Positions 1,919-20,290 of a DNA stretch of 43,942 nt are shown piece by piece. The stretch is taken from assembly GCA_012517355.1 (NCBI GenBank), contig JAAYVD010000065.1, forward strand, positions 1-43,942, given 5' to 3'. The stretch is from Candidatus Rifleibacteriota bacterium. Lineage in GTDB: Bacteria; Muiribacteriota; Ozemobacteria; Ozemobacterales; Ozemobacteraceae. The notes beneath the pieces are model-generated. The model was given only the letters and a program-made list of their open reading frames with translations. It searched no databases and was not told the DNA's origin. How positions within the stretch are numbered: the first letter of the stretch is position 1; each line of letters begins with the position of its first letter. Both the position numbers and the translations under genes were made by a program.

Positions 1919-3499
1919 ATGGTCTGGATGAAAAGCGAACGCCCAGGCCTGCCCGATTCGGATGCGCACGTCCAAGAACCACTGCTCGGGGATGCCCTTC
2001 CCGCCTTGAGAGGAGCGGTATCCCGACCGGGACCCGACCGGCGCGGGGTCGGGAGTGCCCCTTCGCCGCTGCGGAGGGTGGCGCGACCCATTCGTGCCGC
2101 GCCGTGTTCGTGGGCCTTCCTGCTGCTGTTCGGCCTCCTGCTGTCCTGCGCCGGGGCTGCCCGGGCCCTTCCCGGCCACGGCGACGAGGCCGCCGTCGGT
2201 CCCACCGTCCGGCTCCTGGCGCAGTATCTGGCCATCGACACCACCAACCCGCCGGGGAACGAAATGACCACCGCCCGCTTCCTGCAGGGCATCATCGCCT
2301 CGGCCGGACTCGAGACCCGCCTGTTCGACCTGGGGAACGGCCGCGCCAACCTGTATGCCCGGCTGCCGGGCGACGGTTCCCGCCGCCCGGTCGTGCTGCT
2401 GCACCACATGGACGTCGTGCCGGCCGACACCCGCTTCTGGACCGTGCCGCCGTTTTCCGGCCGGCTCGCCGGGGGCCGCCTCTACGGCCGCGGCGCGATC
2501 GACATGAAGACCATGGGCATCGTCGAGTTGCAGGCCATGCTCGAACTGGCCCGGAGCGGGAAGCGGCTGCCCCGCGACCTCATCTACCTCGCCGTGGCCG
2601 ACGAGGAGGAGGGGTCGCTGGGGGCGAAGGCCTTCCTGCGCGACCACGCCGACCTGGTCCGCGACGCCGAGTTCCTCATCAACGAGGGACAGACCATCCT
2701 GGCCGACGGGCAGGGACGCGTCAAACGCTACCTGGTGGCGGTCGGGGAAAAGACGAACCTGTGGCTGGACCTGGTCTTCCGCGGGCCGACCGGCCACGGG
2801 TCGCTCCCGCTGGCCGGTTCGGCCATCGAGCGGCTGGGGCAGGCCGCCGAGCGCCTCCGGGCCAGGCCGCCGGGCTTCCGGGTCTCCCCCGCCATCCGCG
2901 ACTACCTCGACCTGCTGCTCGCCGACGTCGATGTCACGCGGCTTCCCGGGCATCAGGCCGACCTCGGGAGTTCCCTGGCCAATCCCCTCTTCCTGCGGGC
3001 CATCGCCGCCAATCCCCGCATCCGGGCCTCGCTGCAGGACACCATCAGCCTGACCCGGCTGCGCGCCGGCGACAAGATCAACACCATCCCCAACGAGGCG
3101 GTCCTCGGTCTCGACTGCCGCCTGCTGCCCGGCACCGACCCCGGGCGGTTCCTGGCCGACCTGCGCCGGCTGCTGCGCGATCTCGACGTCGAGATCCGCG
3201 TCGTGGACACCCCCGCGGTCGCCACCACCTCGTTCTCGCCGGCCGATTCCGCCTTCATGAACGCCCTGCGCGAGACCGCCGCCCGCTTCGACCCCGGCGT
3301 GCCGGTCACCCCGGTCCTGCTGCTCAGCACCACCGACAGCGTCTTCTTCCGCGCGCAGGGCATCCACTGCTACGGGTTCGAGCCCTACGCGCTGACCGAG
3401 GCGGAATACGACCTGGCCCACGGCAACGACGAATCGTTCCCCGTCGCCCAGCTCGACCGGGCCGTCGCCCGTCTCGTCGACCTGCTGTCACGGTTGTAA
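1919..3499 (+). CDS. Secreted M20 family metallopeptidase
   Basis: Probable exported zinc aminopeptidase or carboxypeptidase of the M20 family, which hydrolyses terminal amide bonds with a two-metal centre. Visible landmarks, counting from the ATG at 1919: a hydrophobic signal segment (about residues 64-83, ending CAGAARA); the metal-ligand motif HHMDVVP (163-165); the bridging Asp in AIDMK (195); the catalytic and ligand glutamates in DEEEG (229-230); NEG (256); and a late His in LAHGNDE (501). The lid/dimerisation domain follows residue 260. The start is uncertain. The ATG at 1919 has no clear ribosome site. The GTG at 2078 would give a compact signal peptide, but its GGAG is too close. A decayed copy of the 85-bp dispersed repeat lies across 2033-2105 between the two candidates. 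Family assignment is firm; substrate is unknown. Confidence 0.88.
   Translation: MVWMKSERPGLPDSDAHVQEPLLGDALPALRGAVSRPGPDRRGVGSAPSPLRRVARPIRAAPCSWAFLLLFGLLLSCAGAARALPGHGDEAAVGPTVRLLAQYLAIDTTNPPGNEMTTARFLQGIIASAGLETRLFDLGNGRANLYARLPGDGSRRPVVLLHHMDVVPADTRFWTVPPFSGRLAGGRLYGRGAIDMKTMGIVELQAMLELARSGKRLPRDLIYLAVADEEEGSLGAKAFLRDHADLVRDAEFLINEGQTILADGQGRVKRYLVAVGEKTNLWLDLVFRGPTGHGSLPLAGSAIERLGQAAERLRARPPGFRVSPAIRDYLDLLLADVDVTRLPGHQADLGSSLANPLFLRAIAANPRIRASLQDTISLTRLRAGDKINTIPNEAVLGLDCRLLPGTDPGRFLADLRRLLRDLDVEIRVVDTPAVATTSFSPADSAFMNALRETAARFDPGVPVTPVLLLSTTDSVFFRAQGIHCYGFEPYALTEAEYDLAHGNDESFPVAQLDRAVARLVDLLSRL
2033..2105 (+). repeat. 85-bp dispersed repeat, degenerate copy (R1-a)
   Basis: Contains the CCGACCGG...GTCGG left hairpin and the GTGCCCCTT-GCCGC core. 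The right half is decayed (GCGACCCATTCGTG instead of GCGCGAAAC...GTTTCGC). It lies inside the 5' end of the peptidase frame. Confidence 0.55.
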
Positions 3500-3545
3500 A
3501 AAAGACCGCCAGCCTCCCGCCAGGCCCATCCGCCCGGGCGGCTCC

Positions 3546-3628
3546 CGTCCCACACGACGCCGGAAGGGCCCCCTGCCGCCGCAGAAAAAAGCGCGAAACG
3601 CCCGTTTCGCGGCCTGCAAAGGGGCCGA
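3546..3628 (+). repeat. 85-bp dispersed repeat (R1-b)
   Basis: Lies between the convergent peptidase and PilZ genes. It contains an 8-bp perfect stem, CGCGAAAC/GTTTCGCG, with a 4-nt loop, inside an outer stem GGCCCCCTGC/GCAAAGGGGCC. By position it could act as a bidirectional transcription barrier. Confidence 0.75.
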
Positions 3629-3653
3629 TCGCCCCGAGGGGGGAAGGCCCCCC

Positions 3654-5132
3654 TCAGGTGACCTGCGGCTGGCCGGCCGGTGGGCCGGCGGGCGGCAGGA
3701 CGGCAGTCCAGGCGGAGCGCACCTCTTCGGGAAGGCGGGCCTGTTCGAGAATCTGGTGGCAGATGCCGATCGCCGGGTCGTCGGCGGGCGGGACGGCGTC
3801 GAGGATGCCGAGCGGCAGCTCCCAATCGGATGGGAAGACGATCCCGCGGGGACAAGCGTAGCCCGTCAGGGTGTTCCGGTCGTAGACCAGAACCCGGTCC
3901 ATGAAGCAGAGGCGGCCGTAGACCAGCCGCTGGCCGGGAGCCACCAGCGCCAGCAGATGGGTGTTGTGGACGCCGACGAACAGCCAGGCGCGGCTGCCCG
4001 GCGGGGAGAACGGCCGGATCTCGGTCGGGGGCGGCACTTCGTCGAGGGACCGGCCGAGAATGCGGGGGGCCAGGAACGCCGCAAGGGTTTCCCGGTCCTG
4101 GGGGCTTCCGAGCTGGAGCCCGCCGCCCACCACCTGGTCGTCGGCATGGACGACCTTGCAGGCGGCCGGGATCCCGCCGCCCGCCCAGACCAGCCGCCCG
4201 GACAGGAGCCGGCCCTCGGGAAAGGCCGTCGCGGCGGGCAGTCCCGTGCGCAGCAGGGAGATGCCCAGCACGCACAGGGTGACCACCGGCAGGGCGGGGG
4301 TTCCGGGTTCCCCCTCCCACACGAAGGTGACCGGAGAATCCTTCCCACCCAGGACCACGCGCCGGAACAGGCAATGCATCTCGCGGCTGATGGCGTCTCC
4401 CAGCGGGTCTCCCGCTTCGGGGGGCAGGGTGGACGACTCGAGGATGCTCCCCCCGAGCCGCAAAGCCCGATACGACGGGGTCGCGAAAAAGGCGACCGCG
4501 CTCTGGTCGCTGCGGCCGAATCCCGCCTTCCCCGGACTGGTGTCGCGCTGGGCGCCGGTCTGCAGGACCCCCTTCACCAGGTCGAGGAGGATGGTGTATC
4601 CCAAAAAGGCGAACTCTTCCTTGCGCGGCGCCCCGGTGGGTTCCTGCCAGAGGAAGAGCTGTGTCTCCTCATCCCCCTGGAACCAGCGCATCCGCATCGC
4701 GGGATCCGGGTTCTTCAGGAGGGAGGCATCGATCTCCTGGAGCGACCGCCCGAGGAGGCGGGGTTTGAGAAAGTCCCCGAGGATCCTGGCGCACCCGGGC
4801 TGCAGGTCGGCGAACGCGCAGCCCACGTCGCCCGCCGCCCGATGACTGACCCGCAGGCCGGCCTCCAGATGGATGGCCCCGAGCAGGAGGCGGGCGCGGA
4901 ATGGCCGGTCGGAGGCGGGGACGTCCCCGTCCGCCCCGTCATCCGCGCGCAGCCGCACTCCGCCGCTGCCGAGGTCGACCAGGCGGAAGGTCTTCCCCGT
5001 CCCTTCCACCTGGACCGACCCCTCCGGGCAACCGAGCCGGGGAAACCGGCGACGGTTGGCAGGTGGAGGCCCGGCAGGTGTTTCGGCGACGGCGGCCTTG
5101 CCCGTCATCCAGCGGATCAGTTCGGAAAACAT
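3654..5132 (-). CDS. PilZ domain-containing protein with duplicated module
   Basis: PilZ domains bind cyclic di-GMP. Residues about 25-105 show the two signature elements: an Arg-rich RRRFPRL block and, about 25 residues later, DLGSGG, matching (D/N)xSxxG. A second, degenerate module lies in the C-terminal half. The segment FLKPRLLGRSLQEI after the first module recurs as FLAPRILGRSLDEV after the second (LQLGSPQDRETLAA), but the second lacks the Arg block and so probably does not bind nucleotide. The start is the ATG at 5132, preceded by GGAAGAGACG, giving 492 residues. The frame continues open upstream through a repeat region, and I reject that extension. No signal peptide, so cytoplasmic. 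The role (motility, secretion or another output) cannot be told. Confidence 0.8.
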   Translation of the reverse strand: MFSELIRWMTGKAAVAETPAGPPPANRRRFPRLGCPEGSVQVEGTGKTFRLVDLGSGGVRLRADDGADGDVPASDRPFRARLLLGAIHLEAGLRVSHRAAGDVGCAFADLQPGCARILGDFLKPRLLGRSLQEIDASLLKNPDPAMRMRWFQGDEETQLFLWQEPTGAPRKEEFAFLGYTILLDLVKGVLQTGAQRDTSPGKAGFGRSDQSAVAFFATPSYRALRLGGSILESSTLPPEAGDPLGDAISREMHCLFRRVVLGGKDSPVTFVWEGEPGTPALPVVTLCVLGISLLRTGLPAATAFPEGRLLSGRLVWAGGGIPAACKVVHADDQVVGGGLQLGSPQDRETLAAFLAPRILGRSLDEVPPPTEIRPFSPPGSRAWLFVGVHNTHLLALVAPGQRLVYGRLCFMDRVLVYDRNTLTGYACPRGIVFPSDWELPLGILDAVPPADDPAIGICHQILEQARLPEEVRSAWTAVLPPAGPPAGQPQVT

Positions 5133-5467: not shown

Positions 5468-5935
5468 ATGAAGAGACTGTGTGAGGCCTATGTGAAGCAC
5501 ATCCGGATCTTTGGCGCCCTGATGTGCATCATTCCCTTCTCGATCGTCAGCGTCTTTCTGATGACGCAGACCCCGTTCCGGGAGGTCTACCTGCTGCGGC
5601 TGGCCCTGGGCATCGTTTTCGGGGGCATGGCCGGAGCTCTGGGCAACGAGTATATGGTGCAGAACTTCTTCTTCCGCGTGACCAGGAAGGACTACGCCCT
5701 GGGCATCACCCACGGCTGCGTCGGGGGCTTCCTGGCCGGCACCATGACCGCCTGGTTCCCGCCGCTGACGCTGTTCATCTCCTCGACCGACATCGAGCAG
5801 GCCAAGACGATCCTGATCCTGAGCTGGCTGGGCGCGGGCCTGACCGGCGTCGCGGTGGGGGGGGTGTTCGGCTGGTTCGGCGTCCGCTACCTCGTCGGGG
5901 AACCGCCCGCCACCCCCGCCACGAACGCGGTCTGA
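5468..5935 (+). CDS. Small polytopic membrane protein
   Basis: Not a family I recognise. The 155 residues contain four hydrophobic segments: about 13-33 (IFGALMCIIPFSIVSVFL), 43-60 (RLALGIVFGGMAGALG), 77-100 (GITHGCVGGFLAGTMTAWF) and 117-142 (ILILSWLGAGLTGVAVGGVF). Glycine-rich helix packing motifs are frequent. The start ATG follows GGGAGGATGGC. The stop codon overlaps the beginning of an 11-bp tandem repeat. Confidence 0.75.
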   Translation: MKRLCEAYVKHIRIFGALMCIIPFSIVSVFLMTQTPFREVYLLRLALGIVFGGMAGALGNEYMVQNFFFRVTRKDYALGITHGCVGGFLAGTMTAWFPPLTLFISSTDIEQAKTILILSWLGAGLTGVAVGGVFGWFGVRYLVGEPPATPATNAV

Positions 5936-17044: not shown

Positions 17045-17358
17045 GATTTCCTCCGGAGGGTGTGGATTGCCGTGACCAGGTCACGGGGTTTGACGCAACA
17101 ACTCTTTGGCCTCACCGGGTTCACCATTGATCTTTCGCATCAGGCATGCCAACCAAGGGGGGTCAGCAGCCCGGATGCTCAGGCGCGGGTCCGAGGGTCC
17201 CGGACCGATGCCCGGTGGGGCTGGCTTTGCACAAGTTTCTTTATAGGACAGAAACCGCTTTGTGGTAATCGCCAGACGGCCGGATATTCCAGGGGCAGGC
17301 CTTGCACAAGTTCCTTTGTTGGGCAGAAACCTCTTTGCCGTTACCGCCGGGCGGCCGG
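17045..17358. other. Intergenic region with repeated block
   Basis: Contains the first copy and most of the second copy of a 69-bp direct repeat (17223-17367). No gene supported. Confidence 0.5.
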
Positions 17359-17367
17359 TCATTCCTC
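17223..17367. repeat. 69-bp direct repeat, two copies 76 bp apart
   Basis: Copy 1 (17223-17291) and copy 2 (17299-17367) share TTGCACAAGTT, TTT, GGACAGAAACC or GGGCAGAAACC, CTTTG, and GCCAGACGGCCGG or GCCGGGCGGCCGG. Copy 2 runs over the last codons of the leftward gene ending at 17359. Function unknown; possibly part of its 3' untranslated region. Confidence 0.75.
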
Positions 17368-18057
17368 CGGGTAGGCGGCGAAGCGCTGGAGTTTGCCCAG
17401 CAGGTCGAAGACGCGGCAGCGGCGGGTGAACAAGGCGAACCGGTCGTCCTGGCTGCTGCAGCAGAAGCCGTCGCAGTAGGCGGTGTCCGGAACGGGTGGT
17501 TCGAAGGCATGGGGTGGGACATCCTCTTCGCTCCCGCCCTGCCGGAGCGCCAGGTAGCGCAGGTGGCGGGCGCAGATGCCCAGCGCCAGGAGGCTGGGCG
17601 GGAGCCGGCCGGCCAGCAGCCGGGTGCCCAGGATGGCGGAACCGAAATGGGTCGCACTCATCACCACCCCGATCAGCTGCCGCACCCCGAACCCCTGCAA
17701 CTGCTGCCGCCAGGCGGCCGGGTCGAACGTCGTCGGGCCGAAGCAGGTCTCCGCCTGGGACCGCAGCACCCGCGAGGGGGGCCGGGACAGGAAGGCATCG
17801 GTCTCCAGGCCGACGGCCAGGCCCCGTTCGAGGTCGGTCCGGGGGGTGGGCAGCCCGAAATCGAGGTAGGAGGCCTGCAGACTGAGCATCGAGAGCGTGC
17901 CCACGGGATCGGGGCCGAAGAGGCGGATGTCCCGCACGATCTCCTCGAGCAGGGGCCGGTGGCGGCTGATGATGGGCGTCTCCAGCGGGGTGCGCACCGG
18001 CTCCCCACGCATGAACACCGCCAGGCCACCATCCAGGCGCTTGATCCGGATCGGCAT
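17359..18057 (-). CDS. Predicted target of the CARF-sigma54 regulator; possible divergent ATP12-like protein
   Basis: 232 residues from the ATG at 18057, preceded by GAAAGGAGGGGAGGGG. It is transcribed away from the CARF-sigma54 regulator and carries a -24/-12 promoter 50 nt upstream, so it is very likely the regulator's target. By eye the first 65 residues resemble ATP12-type F1-ATPase assembly chaperones: GLAVFMRGEPVRTP recalls a GFxVxLDGRPVKTP pattern, and later HFGSAILGTRLLAGRL recalls TGSxxLALALxxGRL. The match is weak. The C-terminal 50 residues add CDGFCCSS. No signal peptide or membrane segment. It could instead be an unrelated defence or RNA-stress effector. Confidence 0.7.
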   Translation of the reverse strand: MPIRIKRLDGGLAVFMRGEPVRTPLETPIISRHRPLLEEIVRDIRLFGPDPVGTLSMLSLQASYLDFGLPTPRTDLERGLAVGLETDAFLSRPPSRVLRSQAETCFGPTTFDPAAWRQQLQGFGVRQLIGVVMSATHFGSAILGTRLLAGRLPPSLLALGICARHLRYLALRQGGSEEDVPPHAFEPPVPDTAYCDGFCCSSQDDRFALFTRRCRVFDLLGKLQRFAAYPEE

Positions 18058-18106
18058 CCCCTCCCCTCCTTTCGGCAGCGTCCCGCCCCCGCTGCCATCC
18101 ATCATC

Positions 18107-18122
18107 CGCAACCGACGTGCCA
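18107..18122 (-). promoter_or_regulatory. Sigma54 (-24/-12) promoter
   Basis: Minus strand reads TGGCAC, five bases GTCGG, then TTGC, followed by G. This matches the RpoN consensus TGGCAC-N5-TTGCW except for the last base. The start would fall near 18095, leaving a leader of about 38 nt that contains the strong ribosome site of the ATG at 18057. It faces away from an adjacent gene encoding a sigma54 activator. Confidence 0.8.
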
Positions 18123-18331
18123 TCCGTCGGGGCATCCCCGGTCGCACCAGGGACCGACACGTTCCTCAACCGTCGACCGCCCGGCTGCCCGGTCGCCGGC
18201 CCCACCCCTTGACGCCGGCCTTCCTCAGCGCGGAACGGGCCCATCCCGGCGGCGGGGCAGGCCACTCCTGAGCCCGGGTCCGCGGCCACGGTTGGTCCAA
18301 ACCGGTCCACCATGCCTTCCTTCCGACCAGG

Positions 18332-18359
18332 TGTCCGTAGGACGTTGGTCCCACGGACA
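18332..18359. promoter_or_regulatory. 28-bp dyad, candidate activator binding site
   Basis: Left arm TGTCCGT-a-GGAC and right arm GTCC-c-ACGGACA are perfect inverted matches, with the unpaired position inside each arm symmetric, around a GTTG centre. It lies about 220 bp upstream of the sigma54 promoter, a usual enhancer distance, and 54 bp upstream of the regulator's own start codon. It could serve as both activator site and autoregulatory operator. Confidence 0.6.
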
Positions 18360-18378: not shown

Positions 18379-18406
18379 TTGCTTTCCGCAAATTTCCTTG
18401 TATCAT
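18379..18406 (+). promoter_or_regulatory. Sigma70-like promoter of the CARF-sigma54 gene
   Basis: TTGCTT (18379-18384), 16-bp spacer, TATCAT (18401-18406). Transcription would begin at about 18413, which is the A of the ATG, and there is no ribosome-binding sequence, suggesting a leaderless message. Confidence 0.45.
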
Positions 18407-18412
18407 GGTCCC

Positions 18413-20290
<1,878 letters not shown>

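What the first reader, a model, noticed from the sequence alone, without database searches (positions are those of the whole stretch)
18332..18359. 28-bp perfect-arm dyad between the divergent genes
TGTCCGT-n-GGAC / GTCC-n-ACGGACA around GTTG is the longest clean dyad in the intergenic region. It sits at enhancer distance from the sigma54 promoter and just upstream of the regulator's own promoter, suggesting dual use as activator site and autoregulatory operator.
Basis: partly seen in the sequence, partly recalled or inferred. Interest (0 to 1): 0.6.

Follow-up and report, generated by a model that had tools for sequence, protein, structure and literature searches.

The report
Likely enhancer site for RtcR-like activator
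A 28-base, nearly symmetrical DNA site sits between a gene-switch protein of a known phage-defence-linked family and the gene it probably turns on; it is most likely that protein's docking site, an ordinary kind of element, although nothing yet proves the protein binds it.

Summary
The dyad is real: TGTCCGTAGGAC-GTTG-GTCCCACGGACA, 18332-18359, with 11 of 12 positions paired, so not "perfect". It is modestly above chance (1.3% of shuffles of the 356-bp intergenic region; 6 such dyads in the 44-kb window). It occurs nowhere else in the 7.1-Mb genome at 3 mismatches or fewer. It lies between a sigma-54 activator of the RtcR_PspF2 family (CARF-AAA-HTH) and a divergent orphan 233-aa gene with a full-consensus -24/-12 promoter, the only one in the window; the genome has rpoN. 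Best reading: upstream activating site for the regulator, 237 bp from the -12 element, farther than the usual 80-150 bp. Support beyond position is thin: a paralogous regulator in the same genome, also divergent from a sigma-54-type promoter, shares the exact 10-mer GTCCCACGGA (0.5% of shuffles). Thirteen distant homologous loci lack the motif, but their sigma-54 promoter lies just downstream of the regulator gene or overlaps its 3' end, so they test the site poorly. Autorepression is disfavoured: the dyad ends about 20 bp upstream of the regulator's -35. Overall an ordinary cis element of a known kind in a moderately interesting, defence-linked setting.

The parts
18332..18359 (.). 28-bp interrupted dyad TGTCCGTAGGAC-GTTG-GTCCCACGGACA (11/12 pairs); proposed upstream activating site
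   Evidence: unique in genome
18333..18343 (.). inner palindromic subsite 1, GTCC-GTA-GGAC
   Evidence: direct from sequence; one of only two GTCCnnnGGAC in the window
18348..18358 (.). inner palindromic subsite 2, GTCC-CAC-GGAC; its first 10 bases GTCCCACGGA recur in the paralogue's intergenic region (L002:1188-1197)
18291..18298 (+). GTTGGTCC, an 8-mer shared with the dyad core, 53 bp (about 5 helical turns) away on the side of the sigma-54 promoter; possible second weak half-site, not significant (21% of shuffles)
18108..18122 (-). sigma-54 -24/-12 promoter TGGCACGTCGGTTGC, full consensus
   Evidence: 16 in genome against 2 for the reversed pattern
17359..18060 (-). divergent 233-aa ORF (ATG after AAAGGAGGGG), the presumed target gene; no recognisable family
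18379..18406 (+). predicted sigma-70 promoter of the regulator, TTGCTT-16-TATCAT; the -10 region AAATTTCC(T/G)TGTATCATG is shared with the paralogue locus
   Evidence: sequence
18413..20290 (+). RtcR_PspF2-type regulator: CARF-like N-terminus, sigma-54 AAA+ domain with GAFTGA, Fis-like HTH, basic C-terminal tail

Best explanation
The dyad is the upstream activating (enhancer) site of the divergently encoded CARF-AAA-HTH activator. On a signal sensed by the CARF domain, probably a nucleic-acid fragment or nucleotide, regulator dimers held at 18332-18359 assemble into a hexamer, loop over about 240 bp, and open sigma-54 polymerase at 18108-18122, switching on the 233-aa orphan gene. Shown: the dyad, the full-consensus sigma-54 promoter, rpoN in the genome, and the regulator's domains and family. 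Inferred: that this regulator binds this dyad, the looping, the CARF signal, and the function of the target. Autoregulation through the same site is possible but not the preferred part.
For: Dyad above chance and unique in the genome. Full-consensus -24/-12 on the - strand, the only one in 44 kb; that pattern is 8-fold enriched over its reversed control genome-wide; rpoN present. The regulator matches PADLOC RtcR_PspF2 CARF_AAA_HTH at E 8.5e-179 and Pfam Sigma54_activat at 2.5e-65. The in-genome paralogue (C52/L002, 43% identical, near-identical recognition helix NYQT(F/L)SNW(M/L)) is also divergent from a sigma-54-type promoter, and its short intergenic region holds the exact 10-mer GTCCCACGGA from the dyad's right arm (107 of 20,000 shuffles). 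Nearly all closely related family members examined have a sigma-54-type promoter beside the regulator gene. The dyad lies outside both predicted transcripts, so a DNA site is likelier than an RNA hairpin.
Against: No orthologous intergenic region of the same layout was found; same-genus genomes lack both genes. In 13 distant homologous loci the motif scores no better than shuffles. In the paralogue the shared 10-mer lies only about 20 bp from the -24 element and is not part of an equally good dyad. Distance to the promoter exceeds the usual 80-150 bp (PMC4987338) and no IHF-like site was found at 8 of 9 matches or better. The statistical excess of the dyad is only about 20- to 80-fold over expectation.
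Confidence: 0.55

Rival explanations
1. The dyad is the operator of a different DNA-binding protein (a local or global repressor or activator) that controls the regulator gene or the divergent gene.
For: The site is strong and well placed about 67 bp upstream of the predicted regulator start, a class-I activator distance. Intergenic dyads in related loci can belong to other genes: in L012/L024 TTACTACATAAATGTAGTAA lies by a HicAB-like pair.
Against: No second copy in the genome or in 39 relatives beyond control level, unlike a global regulator. The 10-mer recurs at a paralogous CARF activator's intergenic region.
Confidence: 0.2
2. The dyad is an autoregulatory operator only: the regulator binds it to tune its own sigma-70 promoter, and activation of the sigma-54 promoter uses other sites or none.
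For: It is nearer the regulator's predicted promoter (about 20 bp upstream of the -35) than the sigma-54 promoter. Distant family members show no comparable dyad upstream of the sigma-54 promoter, so activation without a strong site may be possible.
Against: It does not overlap the -35 or -10, so steric repression is unlikely. The distant loci show no dyad like it upstream of the regulator either.
Confidence: 0.12
3. Chance inverted repeat with no function.
For: About 0.02-0.05 such dyads are expected per intergenic region of this size; no conservation could be shown.
Against: It is the best dyad in the right intergenic region and has four-fold substructure; a 10-mer of it is shared with the paralogue region.
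Confidence: 0.13

Closest known systems
RtcR and its upstream activating sequence at rtcBA (E. coli)
   Same: CARF-AAA+-HTH sigma-54 activator; UAS upstream of a -24/-12 promoter (UAS reported in PMC9650030)
   Different: NCBIfam RtcR score 310 bits against a cut-off of 650, so not RtcR itself; the target is an orphan gene, not rtcBA; no IHF-like site found
RtcR_PspF2 (PADLOC); probably the R-M-linked RtcR-like CARF regulators described in PMC4012209
   Same: Best family match, E 8.5e-179; same domain order; adjacent sigma-54 promoter
   Different: Homologues mostly lie directly upstream of type I R-M or other operons with the promoter at or just after the regulator's 3' end; here the target is divergent and unrecognised
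NtrC- or NifA-type enhancers (from general knowledge)
   Same: Interrupted dyad, multiple subsites, upstream of a -24/-12 promoter
   Different: Different sequence; farther from the promoter than the usual 80-150 bp

Membership tests
RtcR_PspF2 CARF-AAA-HTH regulators | full-length match to the CARF_AAA_HTH profile | tested here: met
   PDLC01995 E 8.5e-179, residues 4-501 on profile 2-478 of 481
RtcR_PspF2 CARF-AAA-HTH regulators | sigma-54 AAA+ domain with Walker A and GAFTGA | tested here: met
   Sigma54_activat 2.5e-65; GESGTGKE and GAFTGA in the alignment
RtcR_PspF2 CARF-AAA-HTH regulators | link to R-M or other defence genes | tested here: inconclusive
   Shown for homologues; the window's own target is an orphan with no family match
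RtcR proper (RNA repair regulator) | passes the NCBIfam NF038308 cut-off | tested here: not met
   310.6 bits against 650
RtcR proper (RNA repair regulator) | adjacent rtcB/rtcA | tested here: not met
   the divergent gene matches no Pfam, NCBIfam or PADLOC family; rtcA/rtcB elsewhere in the genome were not searched for
bacterial enhancer (UAS) of a sigma-54 activator | dyad upstream of a -24/-12 promoter | tested here: met
   dyad 18332-18359; promoter 18108-18122
bacterial enhancer (UAS) of a sigma-54 activator | typical distance of 80-150 bp (usual, not strictly required) | tested here: inconclusive
   237 bp from the dyad centre to the -12 GC, longer than the usual range (PMC4987338); longer distances are known to work (general knowledge)
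bacterial enhancer (UAS) of a sigma-54 activator | conserved in orthologous loci | tested here: inconclusive
   absent in distant loci of other layout; 10-mer shared with one paralogue
bacterial enhancer (UAS) of a sigma-54 activator | bound by the cognate regulator | not testable with these tools
   needs gel shift or footprinting

The most novel reading that the evidence does not exclude
The dyad is the first recognisable binding site of an RtcR_PspF2 CARF activator, and the 233-aa orphan it controls is a new inducible phage-defence or RNA-damage-response effector under sigma-54 control.
Probability: 0.2. Interest if true: 0.5.

Novelty: new member of a known kind. Interest (0 to 1): 0.27.

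Why it matters
RtcR-like CARF activators were linked to restriction systems in 2014 (PMC4012209), but I found no described binding site for this branch. A defined candidate site, a full-consensus sigma-54 promoter and a single target gene make a compact test case for how CARF signalling switches genes through sigma-54. If the target is an effector, it would extend the set of systems these regulators control.

Tried and rejected
Phylogenetic footprinting in the same genus, family and phylum: both genes are missing from close relatives. Motif scan in 13 distant loci: no better than shuffles. Dispersed repeat: rejected, the dyad is unique in the genome. RNA element: no Rfam match; the 93-nt + strand does fold well (z -4.2), but the dyad lies upstream of the predicted regulator start and has no T-run, so a terminator or leader is unlikely. 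Structure of the divergent protein: AlphaFold2 pLDDT 38, not used. Second GTTGGTCC site: 21% of shuffles, not significant. The G031 hit with 3 mismatches is at the level of the reversed-pattern control.

Full report
Observation. The sequence at 18332-18359 is TGTCCGTAGGAC-GTTG-GTCCCACGGACA. Eleven of twelve arm positions pair, so it is nearly but not exactly perfect. Inside it lie two 11-bp palindromes, GTCC-GTA-GGAC and GTCC-CAC-GGAC, centred 15 bp apart; they are the only two GTCCnnnGGAC in the 44-kb window. A dyad this good appears in 1.3% of shuffles of the 356-bp intergenic region and six times in the window, so the excess over chance is real but modest. The full motif has no other copy in the 7.1-Mb genome at up to 3 mismatches, and the four-fold form is exact only here.

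Setting. To the right, 18413-20290 (+) encodes a protein with a CARF-like N-terminus, a sigma-54 AAA+ domain with GAFTGA, and a Fis-like HTH. Its best family is PADLOC RtcR_PspF2 (E 8.5e-179); it falls far below the cut-off for RtcR proper. To the left, 17359-18060 (-) encodes a 233-aa protein behind a strong ribosome-binding site, with no match in Pfam, NCBIfam, PADLOC, plasmids, viral contigs or 39 relatives. Between them, on the - strand, 18108-18122 reads TGGCACGTCGGTTGC, a full -24/-12 consensus. It is the only one in the window and none appeared in 40 shuffled windows. Genome-wide there are 16 such sites against 2 for the reversed pattern, and the genome encodes sigma-54. The regulator's own promoter is predicted at 18379-18406; its -10 region is nearly identical to that of the paralogue locus.

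Family comparison. Close homologues (about 45-54% identical) occur in Omnitrophota, Acidobacteria, Desulfobacterota and proteobacterial plasmids. Most sit directly upstream of type I restriction-modification genes, and two plasmid copies upstream of a VWA-phosphatase-kinase cluster. A sigma-54-type promoter lies near the end of the regulator gene: within about 25 bp of its stop in most, about 165 bp past it in L035 (a weak match), and overlapping its 3' end in L033. The link of RtcR-like CARF proteins to restriction systems was published in 2014 (PMC4012209) and extended to CoCoNuTs in 2024 (PMC11090510). A second such regulator in the same genome (C52, L002) is divergent from a sigma-54-type promoter (10 of 12 matches) and a DndD/PbeC-like plus DndH/HerA-like operon.

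Footprinting. Same-genus genomes lack both genes. In 13 distant loci the motif scores no better than shuffles; those loci lack the divergent layout, so the test is weak. In the paralogue's intergenic region the exact 10-mer GTCCCACGGA occurs, in 0.5% of shuffles by chance. It lies only about 20 bp from the -24 element there and is not in an equally good dyad. This is suggestive, not decisive.

Mechanism. The best-supported reading is an upstream activating site for the divergently encoded regulator, acting over 237 bp on the sigma-54 promoter of the orphan gene. This is longer than the usual 80-150 bp (PMC4987338), and no IHF-like site was seen. Repression of the regulator's own promoter is disfavoured because the dyad ends about 20 bp upstream of the -35; an effect on that promoter from about -67 remains possible. 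Binding, looping, ligand and target function are all inferred.

Verdict. The element is a new member of a known kind. The wider setting, CARF activators driving defence operons from sigma-54 promoters, is more interesting than the dyad and is largely known at the level of gene neighbourhoods.

Noticed in passing
L023 (G000:C52:11500-24000), regulator at 5727 +: Second RtcR_PspF2 regulator in the same genome, divergent from a sigma-54-type promoter (TGGCATCAGGGTTGCA) and an operon with DndD/PbeC-like and DndH/HerA-like genes; a MazE/MazF-like pair (recognised by eye) lies downstream of the regulator.
   Followed up: partly
L014-L019, L034, L036-L039: A sigma-54-type promoter begins within about 25 bp of the stop codon of the CARF regulator gene and precedes type I R-M genes in nearly all of them, a compact recurring layout across phyla (the L039 downstream genes were not annotated).
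   Followed up: partly
window 17217-17365: Two tandem 74-75-bp copies (80% identical) at and beyond the stop of the divergent gene, found nowhere else in the genome; no Rfam match and no unusual RNA fold.
   Followed up: partly
L035:4930-4965 (Polaromonas plasmid pPNAP01): Perfect 36-bp palindrome TTTACCAAGCATGTAA-CTGG-TTACATGCTTGGTAAA just upstream of the CARF regulator gene; also a 4-nt centre, but unrelated in sequence to the window dyad.
   Followed up: no
window 19950-20290: The window's regulator carries a roughly 110-residue basic, proline-rich C-terminal tail that its homologues lack.
   Followed up: no
L024 (G009:C261), about 2950-3840: A HicA/HicB-like pair (recognised by eye) with palindrome TTACTACATAAATGTAGTAA lies directly upstream of another CARF activator of this family.
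   Followed up: no
window 18379-18393: Small dyad TTTGC-TTTCC-GCAAA overlaps the predicted -35 of the regulator, a better-placed candidate for an autoregulatory operator, but only 5-bp arms.
   Followed up: no
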